Positions 28,401-62,619 of a stretch of DNA of 64,000 bases are shown piece after piece. The notes under the pieces are model-generated. The model was not told where the DNA came from, ran no database searches, and saw nothing but the letters and a program-made list of their open reading frames with translations. The number at the start of each line of letters is the position of its first letter. Position 1 is the first letter of the stretch. Position numbers and translations under genes: made by a program. Source of the DNA: Natronosalvus vescus (GTDB taxonomy: Archaea; Halobacteriota; Halobacteria; Halobacteriales; Natrialbaceae); NCBI RefSeq assembly GCF_023973145.1, contig NZ_CP099546.1, positions 1,984,001-2,048,000 of the forward strand. Reading direction: 5' to 3'.

Positions 28401-28890
28401 GCTCCTCGAGCAGGGGATCACGCGATGGGGCCAGCTCCAGACGCTCCTTCAGCAGGTGGATCGGGCGGCTCTCGTGGACGAACCGGATCGATTGAGGGTA
28501 GTTGAACGGAACGGAACTGCGCTGGAGACGTTCGTCCACTCGTGGGAGACGGGCCGTGGTGACCGAGTCGATCGCCAGACGCTCGAAGACTCCGGAGCCG
28601 TGAGTTCGACGTTCATCGATCGGGTCGCCGACCTCGCCGAGGAATGCAACGGCGAGGGCGAACGGATCATCGACGGTCTCAGAAACGGCGAAGTGAACCG
28701 ATTCCATAGCGACAAAACGACGGAACTCGAGACGTATCTCGAGGAGAACGGGTACATCGAGACGGTGGAACCGCTCGAACCTGAGGCAATTCGCCTTCGA
28801 GTGGTGAATGCGTACGTCGAGAACGGTCTCGATCGGGAGGCCGCGAACGACGAAGCCGATGCGCTCCTCAGCAGGCTGAAAACGGTGTAG
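25408..28890 (+). CDS. SbcC/Rad50/YhaN-like coiled-coil ATPase
   Basis: An 1,160-residue ATPase that probably bridges or opens DNA for the nuclease encoded just upstream (4-base overlap). Walker A is GPNASGKTT at residues 38-46; Walker B is LPLILDETLAN near residue 867. Two long coiled-coil arms (about 175-400 and 460-790) are broken by a pair of membrane-type helices (about 407-450, ISALLFGVAGVTLGFFVHPALYLFVAAGVGLGVYGY). This is the YhaN pattern rather than the zinc-hook Rad50 pattern; no CxxC hook is present. The chain continues about 230 residues past the ATPase head with an acidic helical domain I do not recognise. It ends 60 bp before an integrase remnant, so it marks the last clearly core gene. 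Confidence 0.83.
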   Translation: MSEDGLHVETLDIVRAPGFTARGFQVDDLSEGINVVYGPNASGKTTMALSIQELLWPGAVRDGTELVGHLSLNGDDWRVETRDGRVTYQRNGQDANGPGLPPAEERDQYHLCLHDLLSDETRNESFAATIERESAGGYDLSAAAERLEFDDTPNSRRIGEVSAAESAVDAWRTARSEMDALRNEEQRLGRLRTELAEARSATDRVKLLDQVIEFAEARTELETAQEAVSAFPELLESIDGDEAEAVDELREEVGEWEDEKEAAEEAVVEATDAIETAALPDDGVPDGLVERLKSLASKLEDLERDRDDSTADLDEKRAERANCLEAIPLDVSEETLESLDPASWGAVSEFVRDAEQLRSDRSQYESAQQWLRERETPAQDLASLRNGQQALENWLKTSSNESAGSGSHPLVIGTISALLFGVAGVTLGFFVHPALYLFVAAGVGLGVYGYSAHHSGTDETEPGAAHREAFADLGLEPPKSWGPDAVRHRLTELNREIAAHELERLVEERRDAIEGDLEQLERLEDELNERRSELRERFGIDIDVSDLELLVFANGILRWQKYNDRVVGLENKIAEIDAQIDETRADLEATLEPYGYETVDDAAHARAHIASIESRATRHTDATRDLESAAKTIEKATEKIDTLETKEADLFAEIGLDTDELDRLRKLCDQADECQEAVETVRQKKSIVDREAGKLESYPGFDSDLQTKPIPELERDRRRAEETAASYDAIHEEITTIETRVQEAKTDSEVEDAITEKHRALDSLHEKLNEDCASLVGDALTEHVRETTGETNRPAVFEHARTVLARITHGRYRLDLDDGDGTFRAFDTVTETGFDLDELSSATRLQVLLAVRIAFVEQQEQGEQLPLILDETLANTDDGKAEVIIESMLELAKDGRQVWYFTAQGDEVHKWRGALEDVEDVDYCEIDLATVRGLSEEFHVPDLGDLEVRAVAPPSPDPDGHDHDSYGDALDVESFNPRLGAGSAHLWYVVDDVTLLSQLLEQGITRWGQLQTLLQQVDRAALVDEPDRLRVVERNGTALETFVHSWETGRGDRVDRQTLEDSGAVSSTFIDRVADLAEECNGEGERIIDGLRNGEVNRFHSDKTTELETYLEENGYIETVEPLEPEAIRLRVVNAYVENGLDREAANDEADALLSRLKTV

Positions 28891-29269: not shown

Positions 29270-30277
29270 ATGATGAATTTAGAACCCATCGACCCGGAGA
29301 CAGCCCTCGAAATGTACCTCGACTCGAGAGAGCGCGAAGTAACCGAAGCGACACTCAACTCCCATCGATCGCGATTGCAGTACTTCACGGCATGGTGCTA
29401 CGACAATGAGATTGAGAATTTGAACGAGCTAACTGGGCGTGACATCCACCGGTATCGCCTATGGCGACGCAACGACGGCGACCTCACTGCACCCTCTGAG
29501 AAAACTCAGATGGACACGATCAGAGTGTTCATTCGATGGTTGGAGTCCATCGACGGGGTTCCCGTTGACCTCTTCACGAAAGTTCAATCCCCGACGCTCT
29601 CTGACGGGGAAAATGTTCGTGACGTTCGGGTAGACTCGGAAGAGGCTGACGCGATCCTCACAGAGTTGGCCACGTTCGAATACGCCGGAACCATTCACGT
29701 TGTGCTATTGTTGTTGTGGCGTACGATGATGCGACGGAGTTCTGTCCGCGCACTTGACGTAGAGGATTACCACCCCGACGAACAGTATCTTGCAGTCACG
29801 AACAGACCCGATACCGGAACACGACTCAAGAACGGTGACAATGGAGAACGATACGTCGCTCTTCGGGAGCAGACGTGTGCCGTACTCGATGACTGGATCG
29901 AGCGCCAACGGCCAAACGTGACCGATGACTTTGGGCGTAACCCCCTTATTTCCACTGCGCAAGGCCGAATCCACGTCAATACGATCCAGACGTACGCCTA
30001 CGCCACTACACGTCCTTGCTTCTGGGGAGAGGGATGTCCCCATGATCGTGATCTCGATGACTGTGATGGCACGAAGACGAAAAACCAAGCGCATGTCTGT
30101 CCCTCGAGCAAGGGGCCACACGCTGTCCGGCGCGGAGGAATCACGCACAATCTGAAGGAGGGACGCCCCGAGAAATTTGTCAGCGACCGTGCCGACGTGA
30201 GTCCGGATATTCTCGAGAAGCACTACGATCGACGTACAGAACACGAAAAGATGGAACAACGAAGGGAGTACCTCTAA
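29270..30277 (+). CDS. Tyrosine recombinase / integrase
   Basis: A 335-residue site-specific recombinase that would integrate or excise the island by strand exchange. It has an N-terminal SAM-like DNA-binding part (residues about 8-95, TLNSHRSRLQYFTAWCYDN) and a catalytic domain. The first Arg is in RRSSVRALDVED, the Lys is in the hairpin RLKNGDNGERYV, His-x-x-Arg is in HAVRRGGITHN and the nucleophile Tyr is in LEKHYDRR. A Cys/His cluster before the His-x-x-Arg motif (CFWGEGCPHDRDLDDC then HVC) is usual in haloarchaeal members. All catalytic residues are present, so it is probably active. It marks the left side of the accessory region. Confidence 0.9.
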   Translation: MMNLEPIDPETALEMYLDSREREVTEATLNSHRSRLQYFTAWCYDNEIENLNELTGRDIHRYRLWRRNDGDLTAPSEKTQMDTIRVFIRWLESIDGVPVDLFTKVQSPTLSDGENVRDVRVDSEEADAILTELATFEYAGTIHVVLLLLWRTMMRRSSVRALDVEDYHPDEQYLAVTNRPDTGTRLKNGDNGERYVALREQTCAVLDDWIERQRPNVTDDFGRNPLISTAQGRIHVNTIQTYAYATTRPCFWGEGCPHDRDLDDCDGTKTKNQAHVCPSSKGPHAVRRGGITHNLKEGRPEKFVSDRADVSPDILEKHYDRRTEHEKMEQRREYL

Positions 30278-30376: not shown

Positions 30377-33300
30377 TTAAGAGAGATGTTCGTTGCGCAA
30401 GTGGTCTGGTAGTGACTCGCAGTCGAATTCCATGTTGCATGATGAAATAGGGCAGATCTGCATAAAGGTTGGACTTAATCCATTATCAAGCGCAGTTTCA
30501 TATTCATTGATTGCACGGGCGACTTCTCCTTGTTCAGCTAAATAGGATGCGAAATCTCGTCGAAGGAAGGGGGCAACGGGGGTTTGATCGAGACCATCTT
30601 CGTACAGCTCGATCGCTTTTTTGGTTTCCTTTTGCTCGGTCAAAAACGCAGCGAATTTTCCTCGAAACATTGCATCACCAGGGGTGTGTTTGAGACCTTC
30701 TTCATACACCTCGATTGCTCGCTCGATTTCTCCTTGCTCGGCCAAAAAGGAAGTATACTTGAATCGTAGCGTTTTGTCGGTGGGAGTGTGGTCGAGACCT
30801 TCTTCGTACACTTCAATAGCACGCTCGACTTCCTCTAGTTCAGCCAAAAAGGAAGTGAAGTAAACTTGAAGGTCGGTATCTCCAGGAGTGTGATCGAGGC
30901 CTTCTTCGAACACGCCGATTCCTCGCCCGATTTCCCCTTGGTTGGCCAATAAGATAGCAAAATCGGTTCGGAACCCGGTGTCGCTGGGAGTATGTTTGAG
31001 ACCTTCTTCGTAGACCTCGATCGCTCGTTCGGCTTTCCCTTGATCGGCTAACAAGGAAGCGAATCTTTCCCGGAGGTAGGTGTCTTCAGGGGTGTATTTG
31101 AGACCTTCTTCGTAGACCTCGATCGCTCGTTCGGCTTTCCCTTGATCGGCTAACAAGGAAGCGAATCTTTCCCGGAGGTAGGTGTCTTCAGGGGCCTGTT
31201 CGAGACCTTCTTCGCACACCTCGCTCGCTCGCTCGCCTTCCCCTTGCTCGACTAACGAGGAAATGAAACGCACTCCGAACGCGGTGTGCCTTAGAATGTG
31301 TTTGGAACTTTCTTCGTAGACCTCGATCGCTCGTTCGGCTTCCCCTTGATTGGCTAGCAAGGAAGCGAATCCTCTTCGGAGGTCGGCATCTCCTGGGGTG
31401 TGTTTGAGACCTTCTTCGTAGACCTCGATCGCTCGCCCGACTTCCCCTTGCTCTGCCAAAAATAAAGCGAAATCCCGTCGAAGGTCGGTATCTCCAGGTG
31501 TGTGATCGAGATCTTCTTCGTACATCTCGATTGCTCGCATGACTTCTCCTTGGTCGGCTAACAAGGAAGCGAAATCCCGTCGAAGGAAGGGGGTGTGTTT
31601 GAGACCTTCTTCGTACACCTCGATCGCTCGCTTGACTTCTCCTTGGTCGGCTAACAAGGAAGCGAATCTTTCCCAGAGGTAGGTCTCTTCAGGGGTGTGT
31701 TTGAGACCTTCTTCGTACAGCTCGGCAGCTCGCTCTGTTTCCCCATGCTCGACCAAGATATAAGCGAACCAAACTCGAAGGGGAGGCTCTACATAGGTGT
31801 GATCGAGACCTTCCTCGAACACATCGATCGCTCGCTCGACCCTTCCTTGTTCCTTTAAAAATTGCGCGAACGAACGCCGAATCGACGTATTGGTGGCTTC
31901 TTCTTCTAAAGCTTCTTCATAAATTTCGTGTGCCCGATCAAGTTTGCCTCGCCTCTCGAGATACTCCGCGTAGCTCGCATACACGGATATTGTCTCTCGA
32001 CTCAGTTCGATAGCCTTCTCAAAGTGAGTGTTCGCCATCGACTGAAATCTTGCTCCAAAGCGGTCGTGATAGACAAATGATTCTGCGAGGAACTGTGCAA
32101 AATTAGCGTGGACGATTGCAGGCAAATCTCGCTCTGAATCCCCGCTAAGTTCCCACTCGAGAGCCGAGTCTTGTAAGGCTTCACTCAGCTCTTTCAACTC
32201 TCTTTCGTTGCCCTTGAAATCAGGTACTGACTGATCAATCGCTTCAAGACGGAAGTCGTGAATCTGTAGCCTTGTGACTTGGTTCGTCTTCTCCACAAAT
32301 ACCCATCCTCGACTGTTCAGATATTTCAATCCAAGTTCGAACTCACGTTTCCCATCGCACCACTCTGTATAGAGGTATTTGACCGGCGCTGCGGTTAATG
32401 AAATATCGAGGCGATCAACAACCCAGAGTGCTTTTAGAATCCGGTAATAGTCGGGCTTCTTGCTTTCTAATTGCTCGCACCTTCTAATCCATGCATTGAG
32501 AGCATCTTCAGGTAGGTTGTCAGTGTACGCTGCAGTCAATCTCCCATCTGTTTCATCCCGGACTGTTTTACAGATTGCATCAACATACTCGGGATTTGGA
32601 GCGGTCTTCACTACCTGTTGCACTAGTTTTTGACGGACTCGGGGGTTTGCGTCGATATTGTATTGTTTGATAGCTGAGTCGACAAGTTGATCGACACGCT
32701 CTTCGGTGAAATATTCGGGGTCGTCAATTTCGGCAGTCTCGAACCCCTTCCAAAACTCACCGCTCAGTCGTTCTGGGCGATCCTGCTCTTCAAACACTTT
32801 ATCAAATTCTTCACGACGGATCGTCAGTCGAACCCAGAGGTTGTGACCGTCATCTTCTACTTTCGTACGAAGTTTCTGGATGACGGATTTAATTCCGTCG
32901 TTGCTATCAGCAAACTTGTGAATGTCGTCCCAGAGGAACAGAACGTCGCCCTCGTAGTTCCGATTGCACAATGGTTCGACATCAGCGAGTGTCCTGAACG
33001 ACCTCTTTGGAATGATGACCCGGTCGAGATTCTCAGTGTTGATCTCGCCCAACGTTTCCAGAAGAGCCCGAGTTTTACCAGTGCCTGCCCGACCAACTAC
33101 CAGCAGGTATTGGTGATCGGCAACTGCCGTAAGCCCTGACGGAGGGGTATACGGTTGATAATACTCATCCACAGCCAGCGTTCCAGATGCTCGCTCTTGC
33201 CATTCGCTGTGCTGGCGGGTATCAATTTCATGAAAATGCTCATAGCGATCGAGGTATCGGTCGATGAGTTCCAATTGATCACTTATCTGCCTCAGTTCGG

Positions 33301-33805
33301 TGATAACATCCCTATTGACTTCGTGTTGAAGCCGCTCTGCAAGTTCTGTCCCTTCAATCTCATCTGCAAATTTGTGCAAGGAGTGAGCGTACGCCGTTTC
33401 GATAGCTCTCCGTAACACGCCAGATTTGGCGTACTCAGCAGGTAATTTTTGTTCAAAACTGGCTTCTATAGCATTGCAGATCTGATCAACGACCTCCTCT
33501 TGAGCTTCGTATGTGATGTTCATCTCGTTTAACTCAAGAGCAATCTTGTCCCAATTCTCGGCAACCTCTTCCAAATGTTCGTCGTCGTTCTCTCGAGCGA
33601 TGTGACTCACGGCAACTTGCAGTTTTTCGTGGAACACTGTTGCTGTCCGTTCGAGTTCTTCATCCCACTTCTTGCGCTGGCTCTCGCTTTTATACAATTT
33701 TTTTGCTGATTCAATAGCATCGCTGACTCCCTTCTCGAAAGCTTTCTCGCCAGTTTTCACAACCAACGGAGCAACAAGAGTTGCACCAACCAACGGATCG
33801 ACCAT
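30377..33805 (-). CDS. STAND-like NTPase with TPR array and C-terminal zinc finger
   Basis: A 1,142-residue protein with three parts. Residues 1-200 are helical and may be an effector or membrane-contact region. Residues about 200-480 form a STAND/AAA-type NTPase with Walker A GRAGTGKT (238-245) and Walker B DVLFLWDDIHK (287-297), followed by a helical region. From about 590 to 1,110 there are some 15 tetratricopeptide units of 34 residues, with the consensus FASLLADQGEVERAIEVYEEGLKHTPGD. One unit is shortened by about four residues. The last 25 residues contain Cys1118, Cys1123, His1135 and His1140, a C2H2-type zinc finger. This architecture (NTPase switch with repeat sensor) is that of antiviral STAND proteins, but the effector is not recognisable. 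It is a lone gene beside an integrase. Confidence 0.8.
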   Translation of the reverse strand: MVDPLVGATLVAPLVVKTGEKAFEKGVSDAIESAKKLYKSESQRKKWDEELERTATVFHEKLQVAVSHIARENDDEHLEEVAENWDKIALELNEMNITYEAQEEVVDQICNAIEASFEQKLPAEYAKSGVLRRAIETAYAHSLHKFADEIEGTELAERLQHEVNRDVITELRQISDQLELIDRYLDRYEHFHEIDTRQHSEWQERASGTLAVDEYYQPYTPPSGLTAVADHQYLLVVGRAGTGKTRALLETLGEINTENLDRVIIPKRSFRTLADVEPLCNRNYEGDVLFLWDDIHKFADSNDGIKSVIQKLRTKVEDDGHNLWVRLTIRREEFDKVFEEQDRPERLSGEFWKGFETAEIDDPEYFTEERVDQLVDSAIKQYNIDANPRVRQKLVQQVVKTAPNPEYVDAICKTVRDETDGRLTAAYTDNLPEDALNAWIRRCEQLESKKPDYYRILKALWVVDRLDISLTAAPVKYLYTEWCDGKREFELGLKYLNSRGWVFVEKTNQVTRLQIHDFRLEAIDQSVPDFKGNERELKELSEALQDSALEWELSGDSERDLPAIVHANFAQFLAESFVYHDRFGARFQSMANTHFEKAIELSRETISVYASYAEYLERRGKLDRAHEIYEEALEEEATNTSIRRSFAQFLKEQGRVERAIDVFEEGLDHTYVEPPLRVWFAYILVEHGETERAAELYEEGLKHTPEETYLWERFASLLADQGEVKRAIEVYEEGLKHTPFLRRDFASLLADQGEVMRAIEMYEEDLDHTPGDTDLRRDFALFLAEQGEVGRAIEVYEEGLKHTPGDADLRRGFASLLANQGEAERAIEVYEESSKHILRHTAFGVRFISSLVEQGEGERASEVCEEGLEQAPEDTYLRERFASLLADQGKAERAIEVYEEGLKYTPEDTYLRERFASLLADQGKAERAIEVYEEGLKHTPSDTGFRTDFAILLANQGEIGRGIGVFEEGLDHTPGDTDLQVYFTSFLAELEEVERAIEVYEEGLDHTPTDKTLRFKYTSFLAEQGEIERAIEVYEEGLKHTPGDAMFRGKFAAFLTEQKETKKAIELYEDGLDQTPVAPFLRRDFASYLAEQGEVARAINEYETALDNGLSPTFMQICPISSCNMEFDCESLPDHLRNEHLS
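30995..31194. repeat. Two identical 98-bp TPR-coding repeats, 102-bp period
   Basis: Bases 30995-31092 and 31097-31194 are identical or nearly so and lie 102 bp (34 codons) apart, inside the TPR array of the STAND-like gene. Neighbouring units differ at many positions. Such near-identity points to a recent duplication or gene conversion, so the repeat number is likely to vary between strains. Confidence 0.8.
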
Positions 33806-46145: not shown

Positions 46146-47381
46146 ATGGGAGTTGACTCAGGTTCGCACGACGATAACGACCAAACCCAGAGCCTTGAGT
46201 CCCTACGAGAAACCCTAAACAGCGAGTCGATCACTTTCGTCGACACACTCAATACACAAATCAGTGAACTCCTTGAGAACGTGCCGAATCTCCAGTACGA
46301 GTACGTTGTCGGTGACGTTTCCGATTATGGCATCTCTGGAAACGGGCACGCTCATTTCGATTTGGTGCATAACGGTTCGAAAATCCACTGTGTGATATTC
46401 CAGTATCAGCTTTCGACGATGGATGTTGAGGTCGAAGATGGGACACAGATGGCCGTTAAAGGCGACCTCTCATACTATGATTCCAACGGGAGTGTCTCAT
46501 TAATCGTTCAGCATTGCGTGCCTGTTGGTGAAGGGAAATATGAGCAAATCTACCACAAGAATCGAACAATACTTGAGGAAGATGGCCTCCTGAATGACGA
46601 TGAAAAACAACCGTTGCCCACGTTGCCACGATGCGTTGGTGTCGTCACGAGCGCCGACAGTGATGCTCGAAAAGACGTAGTGACGAGCTTGCATGATCGG
46701 TATCCTGATCTGGATATTCTCATCCAGCATTCCACAGTCCAGGGCAAGGACGCCATGCTCTCGATGATGCAAGCGATCAGCCGACTTGACGATAATGCTC
46801 GAGTCGACGTGATCATCGTGACCCGTGGTGGGGGTTCAGAAAAGGATTTGCGGGTGTTCAACGAGACGCCGCTTTGTCGCGTGATTTTCGACACCAAGAC
46901 ACCAATAGCCGTTGGCATCGGCCATGAAAATGATCGGACACTTGTTGATGAGGTGGCCGATCTGCGAGTGATGACGCCCACCCATGCAGGTGAGGTTGTC
47001 CCAAAAAAAGAGGCTCTTGAGAGTGAGTTAGAACTGAATCGGAAGCGTCTGGCAAATGCGTACACCCGGACGACTAGAGAGCGTCTCGACTCCTACACAA
47101 CCGATCTCGAGAAAGGGTATCAACAGCTAACAAGAGACCAACTTGGTGCGTTCGAACGTGAACTCGATCAAGCCTATGAAACAACGGTTTCACAGCAGAT
47201 TACGACGTACGAGAATCGACTAGAGAACGGCCTCGACCGACTTGAACAGCAGAAAACCCACGAACAGGCCCAGGCTGACGCTCAAGAGAAGTTCGAACGA
47301 GAGAAGCGACGGCAGCGTATCGCCATTGCCGTCCTAATTGTCCTCCTCCTCGGCTTGCTCGGCTACATATTCATACTGTAA
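46146..47381 (+). CDS. xseA: Exodeoxyribonuclease VII large subunit with C-terminal membrane helix
   Basis: The catalytic subunit of a nuclease that degrades single-stranded DNA from both ends to oligonucleotides. The N-terminal OB-fold (residues about 30-140) is followed by the conserved core: CVGVVTSADSDARKDVV, then VDVIIVTRGGGSEKDLRVFNE, and PIAVGIGHENDRTLVDEVADLRVMTPTHAGEVV. A long coiled coil (about 275-385) follows, as in the bacterial enzyme. The unusual feature is the end: EKRRQRIAIAVLIVLLLGLLGYIFIL is a membrane anchor (residues about 386-411), which bacterial XseA lacks. The small subunit gene begins two bases after the stop. It lies in the accessory region with a foreign neighbourhood. 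Confidence 0.85.
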   Translation: MGVDSGSHDDNDQTQSLESLRETLNSESITFVDTLNTQISELLENVPNLQYEYVVGDVSDYGISGNGHAHFDLVHNGSKIHCVIFQYQLSTMDVEVEDGTQMAVKGDLSYYDSNGSVSLIVQHCVPVGEGKYEQIYHKNRTILEEDGLLNDDEKQPLPTLPRCVGVVTSADSDARKDVVTSLHDRYPDLDILIQHSTVQGKDAMLSMMQAISRLDDNARVDVIIVTRGGGSEKDLRVFNETPLCRVIFDTKTPIAVGIGHENDRTLVDEVADLRVMTPTHAGEVVPKKEALESELELNRKRLANAYTRTTRERLDSYTTDLEKGYQQLTRDQLGAFERELDQAYETTVSQQITTYENRLENGLDRLEQQKTHEQAQADAQEKFEREKRRQRIAIAVLIVLLLGLLGYIFIL

Positions 47382-48906: not shown

Positions 48907-50058
48907 CTATTCACCTCCATACGCTGGGATGTGACACAGATCCTTTAACCGCGCTTTTCGGCGCTCCTCATTACTCCTCTCATCATAGTGATCTTTGATA
49001 ACCGAAGGCGAAGCATCACAACGCTCACTGATCACTTCTATATCAACTCCTTGATTAGCTAAATGAGTAATATAGCCCTTCCGAACCGCTTTTGGGGAAG
49101 CGTTTTCTTTACAATTGTGCGCTCGGTCAGTATAGCCTAAGCACTCCTCTGGCGATAGTCCGCTGGGACAGATTCCTTCTGTAACACACGGACGAGTGAG
49201 TTCGTAACAATACTTCCGTATCGTCGATAATCCGATTCGGCCTGTTCCTGGCGCTAAGAGTGGTTTGCGGCCATATTCATCGATCACATCATTACGGTTG
49301 TGGCTAATGTAATTATCGAGAATTTCACAACAGGTGCGAGTGATTGTCACATCTCGTTCCCCGTCTTTCCCATTTTTCAGACGAACACCATCCTCGGGAT
49401 CGTCACCAAACGATACTCCTGTCTGGGGATCATCTCGGAATTTTAGCACCCCTCCCTGACCATTCCGTTCGTAATGACAGACATCCAGCGCTCGAATATC
49501 GCTGGGTCGGCACCCTGCCTCAGCCATGAGCGTCATTACGACGTGGCGGGTGGTAGCATACTTGAATTTGTCTGCATACTGAAGCGATAATTCCGCATTC
49601 ACGGATTTGAACACTTCTTTCCGCTCGGTTTTCTTCCCATTATGATCGGGTTTGATTTTGGGAATGTCGACTTTCTCTGCTGTCCCGCGTTTGATGAACT
49701 CCCTGTTTTCACACCAACGGATAAACCGCCTCACCGCCTTCATATTCTCTCTGAGCGTATACCTGCTGAGTGACCCCTCTGCATCGTTGCCTTCTCCTTT
49801 TCGCCAGTTGTAGAAGTCCTCATTCAACTCTTTCCCGCCGATTTCGCCCAGTATTTCATACTCTCGTTTCTGACACCATGTGACAAAGAACGAAAGGACA
49901 GTCCGATAACTACTGACTGTTGACTGTCGAATCTCCTCGCTTCTTCTCGTCAAATAGCGCTCTACGGCCTCATCGGGGGAAATTTTGAATAAATGCTCCT
50001 CAGGTACGTACCTTTCGAGATGATCATTATCGCTGTCCTGATCCTCAGCACTCGACAT
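48907..50058 (-). CDS. Tyrosine recombinase / integrase (second copy)
   Basis: A 383-residue integrase with full catalytic set: Arg in GCRPSDIRALDVCHY, Lys in VRLKNGKDGERDV, then the SPKAVRKGYITHL motif, in which His of His-x-x-Arg is replaced by Lys. The Tyr is in IKDHYDERS. The loss of that His is a real deviation and may lower activity; the same position is His in the gene at 29270. The Cys/His cluster CVTEGICPSGLSPEECLGYTDRAHNC is present. It points toward the left integrase, so the two genes face each other across a 20-kb segment. The start is ATG 50058 after a GGGGGTGAG ribosome-binding site; a small frame overlaps it upstream. Confidence 0.88.
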   Translation of the reverse strand: MSSAEDQDSDNDHLERYVPEEHLFKISPDEAVERYLTRRSEEIRQSTVSSYRTVLSFFVTWCQKREYEILGEIGGKELNEDFYNWRKGEGNDAEGSLSRYTLRENMKAVRRFIRWCENREFIKRGTAEKVDIPKIKPDHNGKKTERKEVFKSVNAELSLQYADKFKYATTRHVVMTLMAEAGCRPSDIRALDVCHYERNGQGGVLKFRDDPQTGVSFGDDPEDGVRLKNGKDGERDVTITRTCCEILDNYISHNRNDVIDEYGRKPLLAPGTGRIGLSTIRKYCYELTRPCVTEGICPSGLSPEECLGYTDRAHNCKENASPKAVRKGYITHLANQGVDIEVISERCDASPSVIKDHYDERSNEERRKARLKDLCHIPAYGGE

Positions 50059-50215
50059 GGTACTCACCCCCAAATGTGAGGTTATCTTTGTTCAGGTTCA
50101 GTTCCTGCGACTCGTCGACGGTTGAGGAAGCTGACTGGTTTTCAAACTGTTCATCATTGCTAGATCCACGGGTATCGATGGTAGACAGAACCGTGTTGAT
50201 TGGTTTGCTATTCAT
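50045..50215 (-). CDS. Possible small protein upstream of integrase
   Basis: A 56-residue frame from ATG 50215 to TGA 50045-50047 on the minus strand (MNSKPINTVLSTIDTRGSSN, then a Ser/Glu/Asn-rich part). It overlaps the integrase start by 14 bases, and its end contains the integrase ribosome-binding site. This overlap suggests coupled translation, with a role as a leader or excision factor. The sequence is low-complexity and hydrophilic, so it is a weak call. Confidence 0.35.
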   Translation of the reverse strand: MNSKPINTVLSTIDTRGSSNDEQFENQSASSTVDESQELNLNKDNLTFGGEYHVEC

Positions 50216-56494: not shown

Positions 56495-56510
56495 CCGCCG
56501 TCGACGGCGG
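56495..56510. repeat. 16-bp palindrome CCGCCGTCGACGGCGG, single copy
   Basis: A perfect palindrome centred on a SalI-like GTCGAC. It lies 28 bp beyond the stop of the 56539 gene and upstream of the 56435 start. The same 16-mer occurs three more times at 58675-58765 (one with a mismatch). In each place it is in an intergenic region. It could act as a hairpin terminator or as a protein-binding site. Confidence 0.75.
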
Positions 56511-56538
56511 TTGAGAAATAGCGACATGAATTGCGTAG

Positions 56539-56874
56539 TTAAAATCCGTCTGGTATGAATTCTGGATGGATCCAGTCCAATTCCTCAGAATTTGCTTCGA
56601 CCCACGTTTCGAGATCTTCGTACTCCAACCGCTCCCCGGTGAACGTCACGGTTCCGTGTCGCGGAACACTGTAGACGCCAATCGATGAGCCACTCCCTCC
56701 ACTGAAATGGATAAGGGCTTCGTGGCCACGTTCACGGAGTGCGAGGATCTGAAATGTTGAGTCGTGCCACCGCAGGAGATTCGCGACCATCGACGAAACG
56801 TTCCCTTCCCGCAGTTCGAGAAGTCGCTCGCCCAGCTGGTAGCGAAGGACGCGCCGTTCAGCTTCCAGCTCCAT
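56539..56874 (-). CDS. Small protein, unknown, first gene of the cassette
   Basis: A 111-residue soluble protein, helical at the N-terminus (ELEAERRVLRYQLGERLLELREGNVSSMVANLLRW) and strand-rich after it (TFQILALRERGHEALIHFSGGSGSSIGVYSVPRHGTVTFTGERLEYEDLETWVEANSEELDW). No motif is recognised. It begins directly after an AT-rich region and precedes the three other small genes on the same strand. Confidence 0.55.
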   Translation of the reverse strand: MELEAERRVLRYQLGERLLELREGNVSSMVANLLRWHDSTFQILALRERGHEALIHFSGGSGSSIGVYSVPRHGTVTFTGERLEYEDLETWVEANSEELDWIHPEFIPDGF

Positions 56875-56953
56875 ATTGCTTGATTAAGTGCTTCCGACTT
56901 AATCTGCTAGTTCGAAACCCACCTAACGTAGAAAGAAGGGACAATTGGACGGA

Positions 56954-57078
56954 CAGGAACCCCCATTCCTGGTCGCTTGCGCCTTTTCGAACCCGCTCCA
57001 CAGCGAGTTCAATATTTCATATGCAGTCCTGACTTAAGTAGATCTGTTGTGAGCAGCCACCGATTGTCCAATGAACAC
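56954..57078. repeat. Direct repeat copy B flanking a four-gene cassette
   Basis: The second copy of the sequence at 55581-55702, about 1.37 kb away and in the same orientation. It lies between the 56539 gene and the HsdR-N-like gene. See that entry for the shared blocks. The element could be a recombination or integration footprint around the cassette, or a duplicated regulatory leader. Confidence 0.65.
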
Positions 57079-57135
57079 TCATCACTGGGATAGGAACCCC
57101 GAATGTGCCTGCTGCGTTAGCACAACTGAGGTCGA

Positions 57136-58311
57136 TCAAAAGAGGTCGTCAGTTGTCGTTGCCGTTCTCAGCTTACCGAGTGTCGTGTCTCGGCGTGATT
57201 GTGGATACTTCGATTCAAATGGCACTGGATCCTTCAGTTCATAGAATGAATCTCGTTTGAACGTAATGACTTGTTCTCCTTCTTCAATATCATATTCGTC
57301 TAAATCGCGTTCTAAGCCAGCAACACTCGGCTCTACGACTGCATCAGTTTCTGCAAAGAACTGGACTTCACCCACATCCCCAGAGATGTACATCGCAATA
57401 TAATCAAACTCCTTTCCTACTCTCACGAAGCCCCATGCTGCGTTCTCTCTTAAGAAGCGGAGGCCCGATTCGCGAGAAGCGTAGACAGCGACGGTCGCAT
57501 CATCGTCGCCCTCGATCTCTTCACGAGAGATGGTTCCAACGACTCTGTTCCGCCGAGGCTGTAGTTCATCACTCTCATCCTCAGTTGGTGGGCTCGCTTG
57601 TGGGTTGGGGTTTTCAGTTGGCCGGTCTTCGCGAACGAACTGGCGTTGTTCACGGAGTGCAGAGACCAGGTTCTGAACGAAATCTCGCGATTGTTCTTCC
57701 AAATCCAGCGGAACCTCCCCAAGTTCCCCTTCCACTGCTGAACTCACCGTCTCTGCTACGTTACTCTCGTTCTGGTTGAGGTATCTGATAGCCTCATTCG
57801 TTTGGGCCACCTGAACGGCTATCTTATCAGCTTTCCCAGAACGGATCGCTTCCTTGGACAGCAATTCGAGAACATCTGGACTCTCGGCAAGGTCGTCGAG
57901 ATCGAATTGTACCACTGAAACTTCTTCACCACCGTTGCTATGCTGATCTTTGGTGAGTACCTCGAACTCCTTTCCGTTCGTAAGAATCCCCCAGTCTACA
58001 TCGAGTTCCTGGCGCATGTAGCTCTTGAGTTGCGTGACGTGGTGTGAACTCAGCCCTGAACTGGCTGCCTTCGCTTCCACGAAGACTACTGGGGAGTCAC
58101 CGACGAGGAGTGCATAATCGACGTGCGTACTTCCAGACGCCATTGGAACCGTGTACTCGAGTTCGACTTCAGTTGAGTACAGATCCCATCCGAGGAGTTC
58201 GAGTAGCGGTTGAACGAGCCGCACTTTTGTATTCTGCTCGTTCATTCGTGGGGATGCCTCGAGCAGTTGTTGTGACCGCTCGACGTATTCACCCACCTCT
58301 TCTGCGTTCAT
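57136..58311 (-). CDS. HsdR-N-like nuclease domain protein
   Basis: A 391-residue protein. The N-terminal 150 residues match the HsdR_N type (the nuclease part of type I restriction enzymes): NEQNTKVRLVQPLLELLGWDL, STHVDYALLVGDSPVVFVEAKAASSG (Asp65, Glu79-x-Lys81) and then LKSYMRQELDVDWGILTNGKEFEVL. A linker of low complexity (about 215-270) leads to a C-terminal domain of about 110 residues (VGKEFDYIAMYISGDVGEVQFFAETDAVVEPSVAGL). No helicase or methylase subunit accompanies it, so it is a stand-alone nuclease-like protein. The first 40 residues of the longest frame are not used because the true fold starts at MNAEEVGEY. Confidence 0.78.
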   Translation of the reverse strand: MNAEEVGEYVERSQQLLEASPRMNEQNTKVRLVQPLLELLGWDLYSTEVELEYTVPMASGSTHVDYALLVGDSPVVFVEAKAASSGLSSHHVTQLKSYMRQELDVDWGILTNGKEFEVLTKDQHSNGGEEVSVVQFDLDDLAESPDVLELLSKEAIRSGKADKIAVQVAQTNEAIRYLNQNESNVAETVSSAVEGELGEVPLDLEEQSRDFVQNLVSALREQRQFVREDRPTENPNPQASPPTEDESDELQPRRNRVVGTISREEIEGDDDATVAVYASRESGLRFLRENAAWGFVRVGKEFDYIAMYISGDVGEVQFFAETDAVVEPSVAGLERDLDEYDIEEGEQVITFKRDSFYELKDPVPFESKYPQSRRDTTLGKLRTATTTDDLF

Positions 58312-58433
58312 ATGTCCGCAATTGGAATACCAACTACAAATAATCAGGTGGGCTGAACAAACTCCGGAAGAGAGACAATGGTCATAGAATCCGTGATCAA
58401 CATACTGAAAACCCTCGTGATGAAGTGTCAATT

Positions 58434-58622
58434 ATGACCGTCACTGGCAATGAACAAGTGTATGTGAGCGAGGCCTCGCACATGTTCCATCTCTCATTGC
58501 GATGCGCTGGAGACCGTCGAGACGTAATGTCACTCCGTGAGGCAGCAGGAACCTACGAACCATGCTGGAATTGTGTGGGCGGTGATGTCCAAGAATACAT
58601 GCGAGACGAGTGGAACCTCTGA
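58434..58622 (+). CDS. Small Cys-rich protein, unknown
   Basis: A 62-residue protein with three Cys (LSLRCAGDRRDVM and EPCWNCVGG) and a His in HMFHLSLRC, which could bind a metal. It diverges from the HsdR-N-like gene and converges with the RecB-like gene, and is followed by three palindromes. No family is recognised. Confidence 0.5.
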   Translation: MTVTGNEQVYVSEASHMFHLSLRCAGDRRDVMSLREAAGTYEPCWNCVGGDVQEYMRDEWNL

Positions 58623-58674
58623 CAAACTCATCTTCAAGCGGCTGTCGGCATATGTGCCTATTGATAAGGAACAC

Positions 58675-58765
58675 CGCCGTCGACGACGGAGTGATCAAGT
58701 ATCCAACAAAACCGCCGTCGACGGCGGATCTATCATACTTCTAACTAAACCGCCGTCGACGGCGG
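58675..58765. repeat. Three copies of the 16-bp palindrome CCGCCGTCGACGGCGG
   Basis: Copies at 58675-58690 (one mismatch, ACGG for GCGG), 58713-58728 and 58750-58765 are about 37-38 bp apart. They lie between the stop of the small Cys-rich gene and the stop of the RecB-like gene, a convergent intergenic region. A fourth copy is at 56495-56510. The perfect twofold symmetry suggests either bidirectional hairpin terminators or a repeated binding site for one protein. The intervening bases differ. Confidence 0.8.
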
Positions 58766-58788: not shown

Positions 58789-59706
58789 TTAGTCCCATCG
58801 GGTTCCATTGACCAGTTCGCTCACGAGAATTGCCTCCGCTTTGAACCGGCTCCAAATTCTCTGTGAGTCTGGCCAGTCATCACTGGTTGACGAGAAGACC
58901 GCATAGTCTCCTCGCTCACGACCAAGTCGAATGACCTGCGTTTCGGCTGAAAGCGGACAGAGATGCCGATACGCCAGGGCTTGCATCACATATTTCGCAT
59001 AGAACCACTCTGAGGTCTTGAGATCGACCGTCTTGTGTTTCCCATCACGTTCATAGATCAGGTCGATCTGGCCACCAAAACCAGCCGACTGCGTGCCATG
59101 CTCGTTCGGCAATGGATGAACGCCCATCCATTCGACTGCTTGTACGGTTTCCTGAGTGATCCCTAACTCGGAGCTGGCAAGCTCCCAATTGCGTCGGATT
59201 TTGCGTACATCTTCACGAGCCTGTCGGAGGAGTGCGCCATCCGTGGAAATAACCTCAAACGCTGGATCGTCTCTCCCAGTAACCCATCCTCGACTCGCAG
59301 CTACGGAATAGACGATATCATCGTGCGTATCCTCTCTGACCTCAGATTCATTGAGTTCTGTCAACTCGCGTTCGGCCAGTGTCAGTTCGTACGACCCAAT
59401 ATCACGGTATTGAGAGGCGATCTGATGATGTGCTAATCGGCCGACCTGCCGTGAAAACCAAAAGAGATGACTGGGGTCAACATCACAGCGGTCGCTGACG
59501 GTGGCCTCACCATATTGCTCATGGATGATCGGATCGATCAACCGTTCCTTTGAGTTCCAATGATCAATTCGGGAGGTGATTGTTGGGACGCTTGGATACT
59601 GGTTCCCAGCCGAATCAACATAAACCGTGATTCCACAGTCTGTGGTGTACCGCCGCTGCACCGCGTTTGGGGCGTTGTACCACGTACTGGGCTGCTTCTC
59701 AGTCAT
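58789..59706 (-). CDS. RecB/Cas4-like PD-(D/E)XK nuclease
   Basis: A 305-residue nuclease of the RecB/Cas4 type. Its order of motifs is: helix with His93/His94 (VGRLAHHQIASQY), GFGGQIDLIYERDG (Asp215), KTVDLKTSEWF (Asp228-x-Lys230) and YVMQALAYRHL (Gln242-x3-Tyr246). All motifs of an active RecB-family nuclease are visible. It is the third gene of an operon. The RdfA-like gene upstream overlaps it by eight bases, and the SMC-like gene lies before that. The shared transcript points to a common role in DNA processing. The ATG at 59706 is used, not an upstream in-frame one. Confidence 0.8.
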   Translation of the reverse strand: MTEKQPSTWYNAPNAVQRRYTTDCGITVYVDSAGNQYPSVPTITSRIDHWNSKERLIDPIIHEQYGEATVSDRCDVDPSHLFWFSRQVGRLAHHQIASQYRDIGSYELTLAERELTELNESEVREDTHDDIVYSVAASRGWVTGRDDPAFEVISTDGALLRQAREDVRKIRRNWELASSELGITQETVQAVEWMGVHPLPNEHGTQSAGFGGQIDLIYERDGKHKTVDLKTSEWFYAKYVMQALAYRHLCPLSAETQVIRLGRERGDYAVFSSTSDDWPDSQRIWSRFKAEAILVSELVNGTRWD

Positions 59707-60331
59707 TCTCTTCCTCACCTTCCTCGGAACAGCACTGGGAGCATCCTCCTGCATCGACAAATTCGGCGTAACTCCAGCGTCGATGACAAGAGCCACAACT
59801 CACGGTAATCTCAACGTCGAGCCGTTCAATTTCCGTACGAACGAGTCCATCATCAGCGAGACGGACGAGATTTTCTTCCAAGATTTTTCGATTGCGATGA
59901 ACAATGTCGTCACTTTGTTGGATTGCTTTCGCCGGAGTCAGTGACTTCCACTCTCGTGACGTGTCGACCCCGAGGCACTTGTTGAAGTGCTTCCGGACGG
60001 TTCCGTACGAGACAAACTCGCCAGTATACCGCTTCGCAGGATCCCGTGCGAACGGCTTCGGATCGAGCCCCGCCTCTCGAAGACTCGTTTTCGCTTTTTC
60101 CTTCTCATCTGATGCATTTTTGCCATACAGATGCTCATAATGAGCCTCCAACGCACTCAGTGGTCGCTGAGAGCCCGCTGCGAAGTAGGCCTCTTGAAGC
60201 AAGCGTGCATTTAACCGATCCGCCACGTCACGCAAGCTGAGATCTTCATCATCATCATCATCGTCATACCAGGCTTCGAGATCCGCTGTAATCCCGTACT
60301 GTTCGATTTGCGTGCAGACTTTGCATGTCAT
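59699..60331 (-). CDS. RdfA-like protein (rod-determining factor A family)
   Basis: A 210-residue protein of the haloarchaeal RdfA family. It has the family layout: a short N-terminal VCTQIEQYGITADLEAWYDD, then DLSLRDVADRLNARLLQEAYFAAGSQRPLSALEAHYEHLYG. GEFVSYGTVRKHFNKCLG follows, and a C-terminal zinc ribbon (CGSCHRRWSYAEFVDAGGCSQC). In Haloferax one family member controls rod shape. Many paralogues occur beside archaea-specific SMC-like genes, as here, and may act in DNA or chromosome processes instead. The run of Asp residues (DDDDDDED) after the first helix is unusual. It is the middle gene of the operon, with a 22-bp gap before and an 8-base overlap after it. Confidence 0.8.
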   Translation of the reverse strand: MTCKVCTQIEQYGITADLEAWYDDDDDDEDLSLRDVADRLNARLLQEAYFAAGSQRPLSALEAHYEHLYGKNASDEKEKAKTSLREAGLDPKPFARDPAKRYTGEFVSYGTVRKHFNKCLGVDTSREWKSLTPAKAIQQSDDIVHRNRKILEENLVRLADDGLVRTEIERLDVEITVSCGSCHRRWSYAEFVDAGGCSQCCSEEGEEEND

Positions 60332-60353
60332 GGGTGAGTATCGATCGATGTGA

Positions 60354-62291
60354 CTAGTGGTTGGCCTGTTCTGGGACTGCTAATTCATCGGCAGGGATGA
60401 GCTGATGTGCATGCGATACTGCCGTTGCATCTTCTGGAAGAAGAGCGGCAATTACGTGGGGAACATCGACCGTCTTGCAAACGTATTCGAGAAGCACATC
60501 GATATTCCTCCTATCAAAGCTCTCCAGTGAGTCGAGCAGGAGGACTGGGACATCGCTGTCGGCGATTTTCCGATGTGCGATACCGGTTGCGATACCGACG
60601 ACGAGTCCGACGAGTTCCCGCTCGGCTTCGGAGAGCGTGGTTAAGTCGTCTTCGTAGACTTCCCCAGACTTGTTCTCGCGCACGACGACAACGCGGAACG
60701 ATGAGTAGGTAGTCGGGTTATCTGTTGGCTGACGGTCGACCCGAACCCGAGCGATATTGTCCAAGCGGAGTAACTCGAGAAGGTCGTCCATCGCCTCAGT
60801 CACCCCTACCGTGACCTCTTGTTCGACCCGCTCAACGTGGTTGTTCAGTTCACGAATCTCACTGCTGAGCCGGGATTGCTTTGCCTTCAGATGCTCCTCA
60901 TCGGATATGCGGTCTTCGAGGTCGGTGAGATGCGCCGTAGTTTCTGCGATATCTGTCTCGAGTCGGTGTGCAGTGTGTTGATGCTCTGTTAGTTTTTGAT
61001 ACTGTTCATAGACGGCCTCATTCTGTGAGAGATCAATTGCTTCAATTTCAGCAGTGAGCGTCTCCAGTTCAGCTTCAACATCGGCTACTTCCACCTGCGC
61101 GTCCTCGATCATCTCTTGTGTCCTTTCGATTCCCTCGTCTAGGTCAGTGAGTGACTGTTCGAAGCGGTCACGTGTATCCTCCAGTGATTGATGGTGTCGC
61201 CGCTGTTTTTCAAGCCGATCGCGTTGTGATCGCAACTCGTCGATGTCGGTGGCATACCCACGAGCAATTTGGTGAAGTTGGTCGAGGCGGTCTTCGACAG
61301 ATCCCTGTGTTGTCTCCGACTCGCAAAGCGGACAGGTTAGCCGCCTTGCTGACGGGTTGAGTCCATCAGTCAGTGTCTCCGTGGTGAATTCAGCCGGAAG
61401 GCCGGAATCGATGAGCCGTTGGGCGGATTCAACGAGCTGATCGGTCGTTCGCTTATCCCGCTCGAGCGTCTGCAATTGGGTGGTAACGGCAGCGATTTGT
61501 GACTCAGTTGGTGCTTCGGACGACGCTAGTTCCTGTTCAGCGACCTCCAACTGTTCTCGAACGCTCGCTCGCTCTGCGTTCCGGCTCTCGAGGCTGTCTT
61601 CGAGCCGGTTGATTCGGTTGGTGATCTCATTTCGTTTCTCGCGCAGTTGTGTCTGTTCGCGAAGGGAGTCTTCGAACTCTTCGGCATCAGAACGGCTAAC
61701 GCTCGATTCAGCAATGGCCTCCTGGATCGTGTCGATTTGGTCGTTCGCCTCGTTCAGTTTTCGTTCGCGCTCGCTGAGTGCCTGCCTCTGGCGCACAAGT
61801 TCTTGTTTTGCGTGTTCGATTTCGGCTAACTCATCGGCAACTTGACTCGCACGGCGACGAAGTACATTGCGCTCGTCTTTGAGTCCTGCTTGGTCGACAG
61901 GAGACATGACGATATTGCCAAGCATGGTATCTACATCCTGGTGATCACCGGTTTCGATGAGACGACGGACTGGATTATCCCGCAGGAGAGTTACCATGTC
62001 TACAATCGGTCGACCGCTTCCAGAGTCCGTCCCTTCATCAGTTGGGGCATCCAATTCGCGTGTGTACTGTCTTCCACCCAGCTCGAGTTCAACCGTGCCT
62101 CGATCGGTGTCTGATTTTGGACGTGCCATCGTTCCCCCAAGGCCGCCGTTGATGGCCCGGAGGAGGGACGTACGGTTTGTGGCGTTCTCACCGACGAGAA
62201 GCGTTAATCCCGGCTGAAACGTGAGTGTCGTCCGGTCAATCCCGCCGATGTTCGATACTTCAATCTGCCCATCGCTGGTACTGTGGCTCAT
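60354..62291 (-). CDS. Archaea-specific SMC-related protein (Sph-like ATPase)
   Basis: A 645-residue coiled-coil ATPase. The N-terminal head has VSNIGGIDRTTLTFQPGLTLLVGENATNRTSLLRAINGGLGG. The P-loop is GENATNRTS at 34-42, in which Arg replaces the usual Lys, a deviation typical of this family. The coiled-coil arms (about 155-310 and 335-520) meet at a CPLC motif near residue 318, like a zinc hook. The C-terminal head has TTLSEAERELVGLVVGIATGIAHR (signature-like) and VPVLLLDSLESFDRRN (Walker B). Such proteins are found beside RdfA-like genes. A TATA sequence at about 62318-62326, 27-35 bp before the ATG, suggests a leaderless start of the operon. Confidence 0.85.
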   Translation of the reverse strand: MSHSTSDGQIEVSNIGGIDRTTLTFQPGLTLLVGENATNRTSLLRAINGGLGGTMARPKSDTDRGTVELELGGRQYTRELDAPTDEGTDSGSGRPIVDMVTLLRDNPVRRLIETGDHQDVDTMLGNIVMSPVDQAGLKDERNVLRRRASQVADELAEIEHAKQELVRQRQALSERERKLNEANDQIDTIQEAIAESSVSRSDAEEFEDSLREQTQLREKRNEITNRINRLEDSLESRNAERASVREQLEVAEQELASSEAPTESQIAAVTTQLQTLERDKRTTDQLVESAQRLIDSGLPAEFTTETLTDGLNPSARRLTCPLCESETTQGSVEDRLDQLHQIARGYATDIDELRSQRDRLEKQRRHHQSLEDTRDRFEQSLTDLDEGIERTQEMIEDAQVEVADVEAELETLTAEIEAIDLSQNEAVYEQYQKLTEHQHTAHRLETDIAETTAHLTDLEDRISDEEHLKAKQSRLSSEIRELNNHVERVEQEVTVGVTEAMDDLLELLRLDNIARVRVDRQPTDNPTTYSSFRVVVVRENKSGEVYEDDLTTLSEAERELVGLVVGIATGIAHRKIADSDVPVLLLDSLESFDRRNIDVLLEYVCKTVDVPHVIAALLPEDATAVSHAHQLIPADELAVPEQANH

Positions 62292-62486
62292 CCTGGCCAG
62301 GGTCGACGACAGCGTCAGTATATAACTCCTGGTGTGGGCTCAGTTGCTGCGGATTCTACGCTCAGCACTGATCGGTCTCTCGTGCGCTGCTGATTCTGAT
62401 TCTCACTGTTACGGTTACTGGTCACAAAATCCGTTCCTGTGAACGTGATTCTCTGCGGTTGATAGCCACATAGCATCCGTTTCACG

Positions 62487-62619
62487 ATAGGGGAGGGGGA
62501 GGGGGGTTGTCCGCAATTATACCACCACCGTAAGCGGGAATCCCTATTCATCTCCTTTTACGATACGAGTAGATAGAGGGGGAGGGGGGGGGGGGGTTGT
62601 CCGCAATTATACCACCACT
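62487..62619 (+). repeat. Two copies of a G-tract element, 90 bp apart
   Basis: Each copy has a G-rich run, then TTGTCCGCAATTATACCACCAC (62507-62528 and 62597-62618, exactly 90 bp apart). The first G-run is GGGGAGGGGGAGGGGGG (62490-62506); the second includes 13 consecutive G. The G-runs could form four-stranded DNA. A related copy is on the minus strand at 45006-45024. It lies in the 423-bp gap 62292-62714 upstream of the SMC-like operon; I see no gene in that gap. Confidence 0.75.

What the first reader, a model, noticed from the sequence alone, without database searches (positions are those of the whole stretch)
58789..62291. Three-gene operon: SMC-like ATPase, RdfA-like protein and RecB/Cas4-like nuclease
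Seen: a coiled-coil ATPase with a central CPLC hook, an RdfA-family protein with a C-terminal zinc ribbon and a complete RecB-type nuclease lie on one strand. A 22-bp gap and an 8-base overlap separate them, and one TATA box is upstream. Known: archaea-specific SMC-like genes are often beside RdfA-like genes, and one RdfA controls cell shape. Inference: adding a nuclease with all motifs (His, Asp215, Asp228-x-Lys230, Gln-x3-Tyr) inside a nuclease-rich island suggests a DNA-sensing or DNA-cutting complex, comparable to other SMC-based anti-plasmid systems, that has not been described in this form.
Basis: partly seen in the sequence, partly recalled or inferred. Interest (0 to 1): 0.85.

Follow-up and report, generated by a model that had tools for sequence, protein, structure and literature searches.

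The report
RdfA-nuclease module beside BREX defence
In this salt-loving archaeon a gene family so far known from cell-shape control (RdfA) is paired with a DNA-cutting enzyme and an SMC-like motor protein, and the pairing recurs in other species, usually next to the BREX antiviral system, so it is probably an undescribed virus- or plasmid-defence unit.

Summary
In detail: ASRP (archaea-specific SMC-related ATPase, 60354-62291), RdfA (59699-60331) and a complete RecB/Cas4-type nuclease (58789-59706) form one minus-strand operon. The ASRP-RdfA pair is already known and common. The nuclease is what is new. In 394 genomes of the order only eight strong homologues exist, in seven genomes. It directly follows RdfA in five genomes; in a sixth, RdfA-ASRP lies 2 kb upstream. 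The five RdfAs other than the window's form one supported clade; their profile finds those five (340-358 bits) and nothing else above 200. The divergent window RdfA can join them (p-AU 0.62). The two intact nuclease-linked ASRPs, and a decayed third, are a separate clade; the intact two alone lack the CWTC hook. The contiguous three-gene operon is unique to this genome, and the ATPase varies (ASRP, Rad50/Mre11, none). Four of six RdfA-nuclease loci, this one included, lie within 8 kb of a complete BREX system, against 0 of 40 ordinary ASRP-RdfA loci. The others neighbour a DUF1156-methylase/DUF499 cluster or Mre11-Rad50-NurA-HerA. Best reading: a small defence module in which a dedicated RdfA couples a RecB-type nuclease to SMC/Rad50-type DNA sensing. 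Mechanism is inferred.

The parts
60354..62291 (-). ASRP, archaea-specific SMC-related ATPase (645 aa): Walker A GENATNRTS, CPLC hook, LSEAE signature, LLLDSLE Walker B
   Evidence: NF045487 380 bits, cut-off 300; motifs; clade with L015/L016 ASRPs at 100/99
61323..61334 (-). hook codons CPLC, residues 320-323 of ASRP
   Evidence: 59 of 61 aligned ASRPs have CWTC, only the window (CPLC) and L015 (CPTC) differ
59699..60331 (-). divergent RdfA-family protein (210 aa), helical, C-terminal Cys4 zinc ribbon (C179, C182, C197, C200)
   Evidence: PF21811 105.5 bits; conserved cysteines; model pLDDT 88, no PDB fold match at E<=0.001
58789..59706 (-). RecB/Cas4/MGME1-type PD-(D/E)XK nuclease (305 aa)
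   Evidence: PF12705; invariant H93, E192, D215, K230, Q242; fold match to MGME1/Cas4/ACE1
62318..62325 (-). TATA-like promoter box TTATATAC, 27 bp before the ASRP ATG
   Evidence: sequence
58674..58765 (.). three copies of the 16-bp palindrome CCGCCGTCGACGGCGG (one copy with 1 mismatch), 38-bp spacing, starting 24 bp past the nuclease stop
   Evidence: only 4 exact copies in the whole genome, all within 12.2 kb, the last about 130 bp before brxA
56495..56510 (.). further exact copy of the same palindrome, 29 bp past the stop of a minus-strand 111-aa gene

Best explanation
A small haloarchaeal defence module. Its constant part is a dedicated RdfA sub-family member plus a RecB/Cas4-type nuclease. 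The DNA-sensing or translocating ATPase is interchangeable: here ASRP, in other loci Rad50-Mre11-NurA-HerA, an Mre11-like protein, or none adjacent. Shown: the gene families and intact motifs, the recurrent RdfA-nuclease pairing with a specific RdfA clade, the separate clade and altered hook of the nuclease-linked ASRPs, and the location beside BREX or other modification-based systems. Inferred: RdfA, which pairs with SMC-like proteins across haloarchaea, acts as adaptor and tethers the nuclease to the ATPase; the ATPase finds invading DNA (ends, small circles or stalled replication intermediates); the nuclease then resects or degrades it. Beside BREX it would add DNA destruction to a modification-based block.
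For: Eight strong nuclease homologues in seven of 394 genomes. RdfA lies immediately upstream on the same strand in five genomes (G000, G287, G062, G006, G352) and 4 kb upstream, beyond ASRP, in G284. RdfA clade of five at 99/100; window RdfA joining it not rejected, p-AU 0.62. Profile of those five RdfAs against 394 genomes: 340-358 bits for the five, next best 200. NUC-linked ASRPs form a clade at 100/99 with CPLC/CPTC instead of CWTC. Complete BREX (BrxA, BrxB, two BrxC, PglX, PglZ in G000), with BrxC or BrxHII within 8 kb at G000, G287, G352 and G006, against 0 of 40 control ASRP loci, Fisher p = 9e-5, or 7e-4 with G287/G352 counted once. G284 has a DUF1156 methylase and a DUF499 ATPase nearby; G062 has Mre11-Rad50-NurA-HerA. 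Nuclease residues and fold. A genome-unique palindrome is shared by the operon's 3' end and the region before brxA.
Against: No defence activity or physical complex has been shown. Defence genes cluster, so BREX proximity may be hitchhiking. ASRP and nuclease are contiguous only here. The nuclease tree splits the RdfA-linked nucleases into at least two lineages, one (L022/L023) nearer to members without RdfA, so strict co-evolution fails. G137 has the nuclease without RdfA. Only six RdfA-nuclease loci are known, at 24-30% identity to the window nuclease. RdfA/Sph3 in Haloferax is a cell-shape pair (PMC10869688), so a non-defence role of the ATPase-RdfA part is possible.
Confidence: 0.5

Rival explanations
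1. A DNA-end-processing (recombination or repair) module of mobile elements. The nuclease descends from a halovirus exonuclease and, with SMC/Rad50-like partners, resects ends for the element's own recombination or for repair; it is not a defence.
For: The nearest non-RdfA relatives include proviral genes beside tail, baseplate or PCNA genes and a Haloarcula tailed virus 2 nuclease. One RdfA-nuclease pair follows Mre11-Rad50-NurA-HerA, another an Mre11-like gene. The fold is nearest to MGME1/RecE/AdnAB. Integrases lie in the window island at 29270-30277 and 48907-50073.
Against: No virus structural genes were recognised in the parts of the RdfA-nuclease loci that were read. Four of six adjoin complete BREX. 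No match in viral contigs, although those pattern scans are narrow.
Confidence: 0.22
2. An ordinary ASRP-RdfA pair (chromosome organisation or cell shape) that happens to lie next to a stray nuclease in a defence island.
For: ASRP-RdfA pairs are everywhere: 36 of 42 ASRPs in the sampled loci have RdfA within 500 bp, and 42 of 54 RdfAs are adjacent to SMC-like genes in the published survey (PMC10869688). The three genes are contiguous only in this genome.
Against: RdfA recurs beside the nuclease in five further genomes, with one specific RdfA clade found only there. The linked ASRPs are a separate clade with a changed hook. The genes overlap by 8 bases behind one promoter.
Confidence: 0.13
3. 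A dedicated accessory of haloarchaeal BREX: the operon works only with, or is regulated together with, the neighbouring BREX genes.
For: Four of six loci within 8 kb of BREX, on either flank. In this genome the palindrome at the operon's 3' end recurs about 130 bp before brxA and nowhere else outside this 12-kb stretch.
Against: G284 and G062 have the pair but no such BrxC. Position and orientation relative to BREX vary. The palindrome is not found at the other loci. A recent BREX survey does not mention RdfA, RecB or SMC accessories (PMC12839542).
Confidence: 0.15

Closest known systems
ASRP-RdfA pair (Sph3/RdfA of Haloferax volcanii; PMC9389158, PMC10869688)
   Same: same two families, adjacent genes, conserved synteny
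   Different: third gene encodes a nuclease; ASRP and RdfA belong to divergent sub-lineages; hook CPLC instead of CWTC; located beside BREX rather than with shape genes
Lamassu (LmuB SMC-like ATPase, LmuC, LmuA effector; PMC10586767)
   Same: small operon of an SMC-like ATPase, a small middle protein and an effector that can be a PD-(D/E)XK nuclease
   Different: ASRP is not LmuB (only 52 bits over its coiled-coil-rich length); neither RdfA nor the nuclease matches any LmuA/LmuC model; the nuclease is a single RecB/Cas4-type domain
Wadjet (JetABCD)
   Same: SMC-like ATPase plus nuclease idea
   Different: no kleisin, no KITE, no Toprim JetD
BREX (BrxA, BrxB, two BrxC, PglX, PglZ, BrxHII; called type 5 in haloarchaea from my own knowledge)
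   Same: physically next to the operon in four of six loci
   Different: the three proteins match no BREX component; they would be an accessory at most
Mre11-Rad50-NurA-HerA resection machinery
   Same: SMC-superfamily ATPase with nucleases; found next to one RdfA-nuclease pair
   Different: different ATPase family (ASRP), no Mre11 or NurA in the window operon, RecB-type nuclease instead

Membership tests
ASRP (NF045487) | full-length profile match above curated cut-off | tested here: met
   380 bits against 300
ASRP (NF045487) | Walker A, signature and Walker B motifs as in the family | tested here: met
   GENATNRTS, LSEAE, LLLDSLE; family has GxNATNRTS, LSESE, LLDSLE
ASRP (NF045487) | hook CWTC, common to haloarchaeal members | tested here: not met
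   CPLC here, CPTC in L015, CWTC in 59 of 61; not a published defining feature, marks a sub-lineage
RdfA (PF21811) | profile match over the whole length above cut-off | tested here: met
   105.5 bits against 27, profile 1-193 of 195
RdfA (PF21811) | controls cell shape | not testable with these tools
   shown only for HVO_2174 (PMC10869688)
RecB/Cas4-type PD-(D/E)XK nuclease (PF12705) | catalytic residues H, D, D/ExK, Q | tested here: met
   H93, D215, K230, Q242 invariant in 11; D228 D/E in 10 of 11
RecB/Cas4-type PD-(D/E)XK nuclease (PF12705) | fold | tested here: met
   Foldseek E-values: MGME1 6.6e-5, Cas4 1.4e-4, ACE1 6.4e-4
Lamassu | LmuB sensor ATPase | tested here: not met
   best LmuB model 52 bits over residues 155-588, far below the ASRP match
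Lamassu | LmuA effector with C-terminal docking region; LmuC | tested here: not met
   no LmuA or LmuC model matches RdfA or the nuclease
Wadjet | JetA kleisin, JetB KITE, JetD Toprim nuclease | tested here: not met
   RdfA and the nuclease match no Jet model; JetC hits on ASRP are weak coiled-coil matches
BREX core | the protein is a BrxA, B, C, PglX, PglZ or BrxHII | tested here: not met
   RdfA and the nuclease match no BREX model, ASRP shows none among its best 25; BREX itself is a neighbour
anti-plasmid or anti-virus system | restriction phenotype | not testable with these tools
   needs genetics

The most novel reading that the evidence does not exclude
RdfA proteins are general adaptors of archaeal SMC-like ATPases, and one RdfA clade has been turned into the nuclease-docking subunit of a modular anti-virus/anti-plasmid system linked to BREX, in which the DNA-sensing ATPase (ASRP or Rad50/Mre11) is swappable. 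To my knowledge it would be the first immune role of the ASRP/Sph/coalescin family.
Probability: 0.35. Interest if true: 0.82.

Novelty: new variant of a known kind. Interest (0 to 1): 0.63.

Why it matters
ASRP and RdfA are widespread in haloarchaea (316 and 342 of 394 genomes here) but are known only from cell shape and chromosome organisation. A sub-lineage tied to a nuclease and to BREX gives a concrete, testable biochemical role for RdfA as an adaptor. It would also extend SMC-based immunity (Wadjet, Lamassu) to the archaeal SMC-related family.

Tried and rejected
Nuclease as a general third member of ASRP-RdfA operons: rejected, 0 of 40 ASRP loci closest to the window's carry it. Filing as Lamassu or Wadjet: rejected by component tests. 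Nuclease on plasmids: tblastn with five family members gave only a 61-aa remnant on a Natrialba magadii plasmid. Viral contigs: none (narrow patterns). The genome-contig scan returned only Halorubellus salinus GX3, the record behind L015; an alignment of nucleases had no stretch conserved enough to search with. Conserved small gene between RdfA and nuclease: only in L020/L021. Palindromes past the nuclease in other loci: none. RdfA fold: good model but no PDB match, so no mechanism from fold. Strict co-evolution of nuclease and RdfA: not upheld, nuclease tree needs at least three changes. Complex prediction was not possible with the tools. The order-wide BREX base rate could only be sampled in 14 genomes (3 positive, two of them nuclease carriers).
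Full report
The observation. The three minus-strand genes are real and placed as stated: ASRP 60354-62291, RdfA 59699-60331, nuclease 58789-59706. The 22-bp gap, the 8-base ATGACTGA overlap and the TTATATAC box 27 bp before the ASRP start are all there. Curated profiles agree: NF045487 ASRP at 380 bits, PF21811 RdfA at 105.5 bits and PF12705 PDDEXK_1 at 25.8 bits, each above cut-off. A predicted structure of the nuclease matches MGME1, Cas4, the Argonaute-associated Cas4 ACE1, AdnAB and RecE.

What is already known. ASRP is a published archaeal family that includes Sph and coalescin (PMC9389158). ASRP-RdfA adjacency is published: 42 of 54 RdfAs lie next to SMC-like genes, and RdfA and Sph3 are needed for rod shape in Haloferax (PMC10869688). 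I see the same: RdfA in 342 of 394 genomes of the order, ASRP in 316 of 394, and 36 of 42 ASRPs in the sampled loci with RdfA within 500 bp. So two thirds of the operon is ordinary; the question is the nuclease.

The nuclease is rare and tied to RdfA. A profile of the family gives eight strong hits in seven of 394 genomes; weaker hits include proviral nucleases and two orphans. RdfA is directly upstream on the same strand in five genomes: the window's own, G287/L019, G062/L020, G006/L021 and G352/L023. In G284/L015 (Halorubellus salinus GX3) the order is RdfA, ASRP, 2 kb, nuclease, and a second, decayed ASRP plus nuclease lies 23 kb away (L016). In G137/L022 no RdfA was found. None of 40 other ASRP loci, chosen as the most similar to the window's, carries the nuclease.

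Sub-lineages. The five other nuclease-linked RdfAs form one clade (99/100). The window RdfA sits on a long branch, and a tree that unites all six is slightly more likely (p-AU 0.62). Searching 394 genomes with a profile of the five gives 340-358 bits for those five and at most 200 for anything else; the five were used to build the profile, but the empty range between shows no close member without the nuclease. The nuclease-linked ASRPs also form a clade (100/99). Among 61 aligned ASRPs only the window (CPLC) and L015 (CPTC) depart from the CWTC hook. Against strict co-evolution, the nuclease tree separates L022/L023 from the rest.

Surroundings. The window operon lies in a low-GC island (GC 0.43-0.54 from about 30 kb to the window end, 0.58-0.68 before) with integrases, a methyl-directed restriction enzyme (mREase_II, 497 bits), an HSDR_N protein and XseA. 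Just beyond the window a complete BREX system begins: BrxA, BrxC, BrxB, second BrxC, PglX, PglZ. It is divergent from the operon, with brxA about 6.5 kb from the ASRP start. BREX is also adjacent in G006 (divergent, as here) and in G287 and G352 (nuclease downstream of BrxHII). BrxC, PglZ or BrxHII lies within 8 kb at four of six RdfA-nuclease loci and at none of 40 control ASRP loci (Fisher p = 9e-5; 7e-4 when the similar G287 and G352 are counted once). In a 14-genome sample this BrxC occurred in three genomes, two of them nuclease carriers. The two loci without BREX have a DUF1156 methylase with a DUF499 ATPase (G284) or an Mre11-Rad50-NurA-HerA operon (G062). In G287 an Mre11-like gene directly precedes RdfA.

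A palindrome. CCGCCGTCGACGGCGG occurs exactly four times in the 3.84-Mb genome, all within 12.2 kb: two copies plus one near-copy at 38-bp spacing starting 24 bp past the nuclease stop, one 2 kb further, and one about 130 bp before brxA. Each of the three sites follows a stop codon by 24-30 bp. It is absent from the other loci. It may be a shared operator, 3'-end element or insertion footprint; I cannot tell which.

Mechanism. Shown: families, motifs, pairing, sub-lineages, location. Inferred: RdfA, whose partners across haloarchaea are SMC-like ATPases, is an adaptor; one clade has taken on a RecB/Cas4-type nuclease; the ATPase (ASRP here, Rad50/Mre11 elsewhere) detects or pulls foreign DNA and the nuclease degrades it. 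The anatomy (SMC-like ATPase, small middle protein, PD-(D/E)XK effector) resembles Lamassu in plan (PMC10586767), but membership tests fail: no LmuA or LmuC match, and only a coiled-coil-level LmuB match. Wadjet and BREX membership also fail.

Rivals. A virus-derived end-processing module for repair or recombination is the strongest rival, because relatives outside the group are proviral or viral and two loci carry Mre11-type genes. A chance neighbour is unlikely given the recurrence. A BREX accessory is possible but not general, since two loci lack BREX. Hitchhiking within defence islands cannot be excluded by sequence alone.

Limits. One genome per species, 394 of a larger order, six informative loci, identities of 24-30% to the window nuclease, no complex model, and no experiment.

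Noticed in passing
window 56495-58765 and G000:C1:2052664: Genome-unique 16-bp palindrome CCGCCGTCGACGGCGG, four exact copies within 12.2 kb linking the operon's 3' end and the brxA upstream region, each site 24-30 bp past a stop codon.
   Followed up: partly
window 62490-62528 and 62580-62618: 39-nt direct repeat (92%) with G-tracts and TTGTCCGCAATTATACCACCAC, roughly 170-330 bp upstream of the ASRP promoter.
   Followed up: no
G000:C1:2052813-2068686 (L110 and beyond), just past the window end: Complete haloarchaeal BREX system (BrxA, BrxC, BrxB, BrxC2, PglX, PglZ).
   Followed up: yes
L019:12830-13591, L023:12538-13299, L020:8716-9486, L021:9040-9810; weakly L022:10071-10904: A 253-256-aa winged-helix-like plus coiled-coil protein lies near or convergent to the nuclease in four loci (weak match in a fifth) and in no control locus.
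   Followed up: partly
L019:14224-19504 and L023:14713-19504: Both loci downstream of BREX share a pair: PDDEXK_1 protein (873/856 aa) and UvrD helicase with PDDEXK_1 end (AddAB-like).
   Followed up: partly
L110:2615-3388, L020:11421-12251, L096:2935-3804: Related proteins that look trypsin-like by eye (no Pfam match for the one scanned) occur near the nuclease in three loci.
   Followed up: no
L020/L105 (G062:C2, about 197.9-205.5 kb): Mre11-Rad50-NurA-HerA operon with a divergent Rad50 (483 bits, below the Rad50 cut-offs) next to RdfA-nuclease.
   Followed up: partly
window 46146-47381: Exonuclease VII large subunit XseA (290 bits) inside the low-GC island of an archaeon.
   Followed up: no
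window 25408-28890: 1160-aa protein with weak AAA_27/AAA_13 (Rad50-like) N-terminus at the high-GC edge of the island.
   Followed up: no
window 30377-33805: 1142-aa TPR-rich protein next to an integrase (29270-30277) at the GC boundary, possible island edge.
   Followed up: no
G284:C5:379.9-381.5 kb (L016): Decayed ASRP fragment followed by a nuclease with its motifs but no clear start, 23 kb from the intact set.
   Followed up: partly
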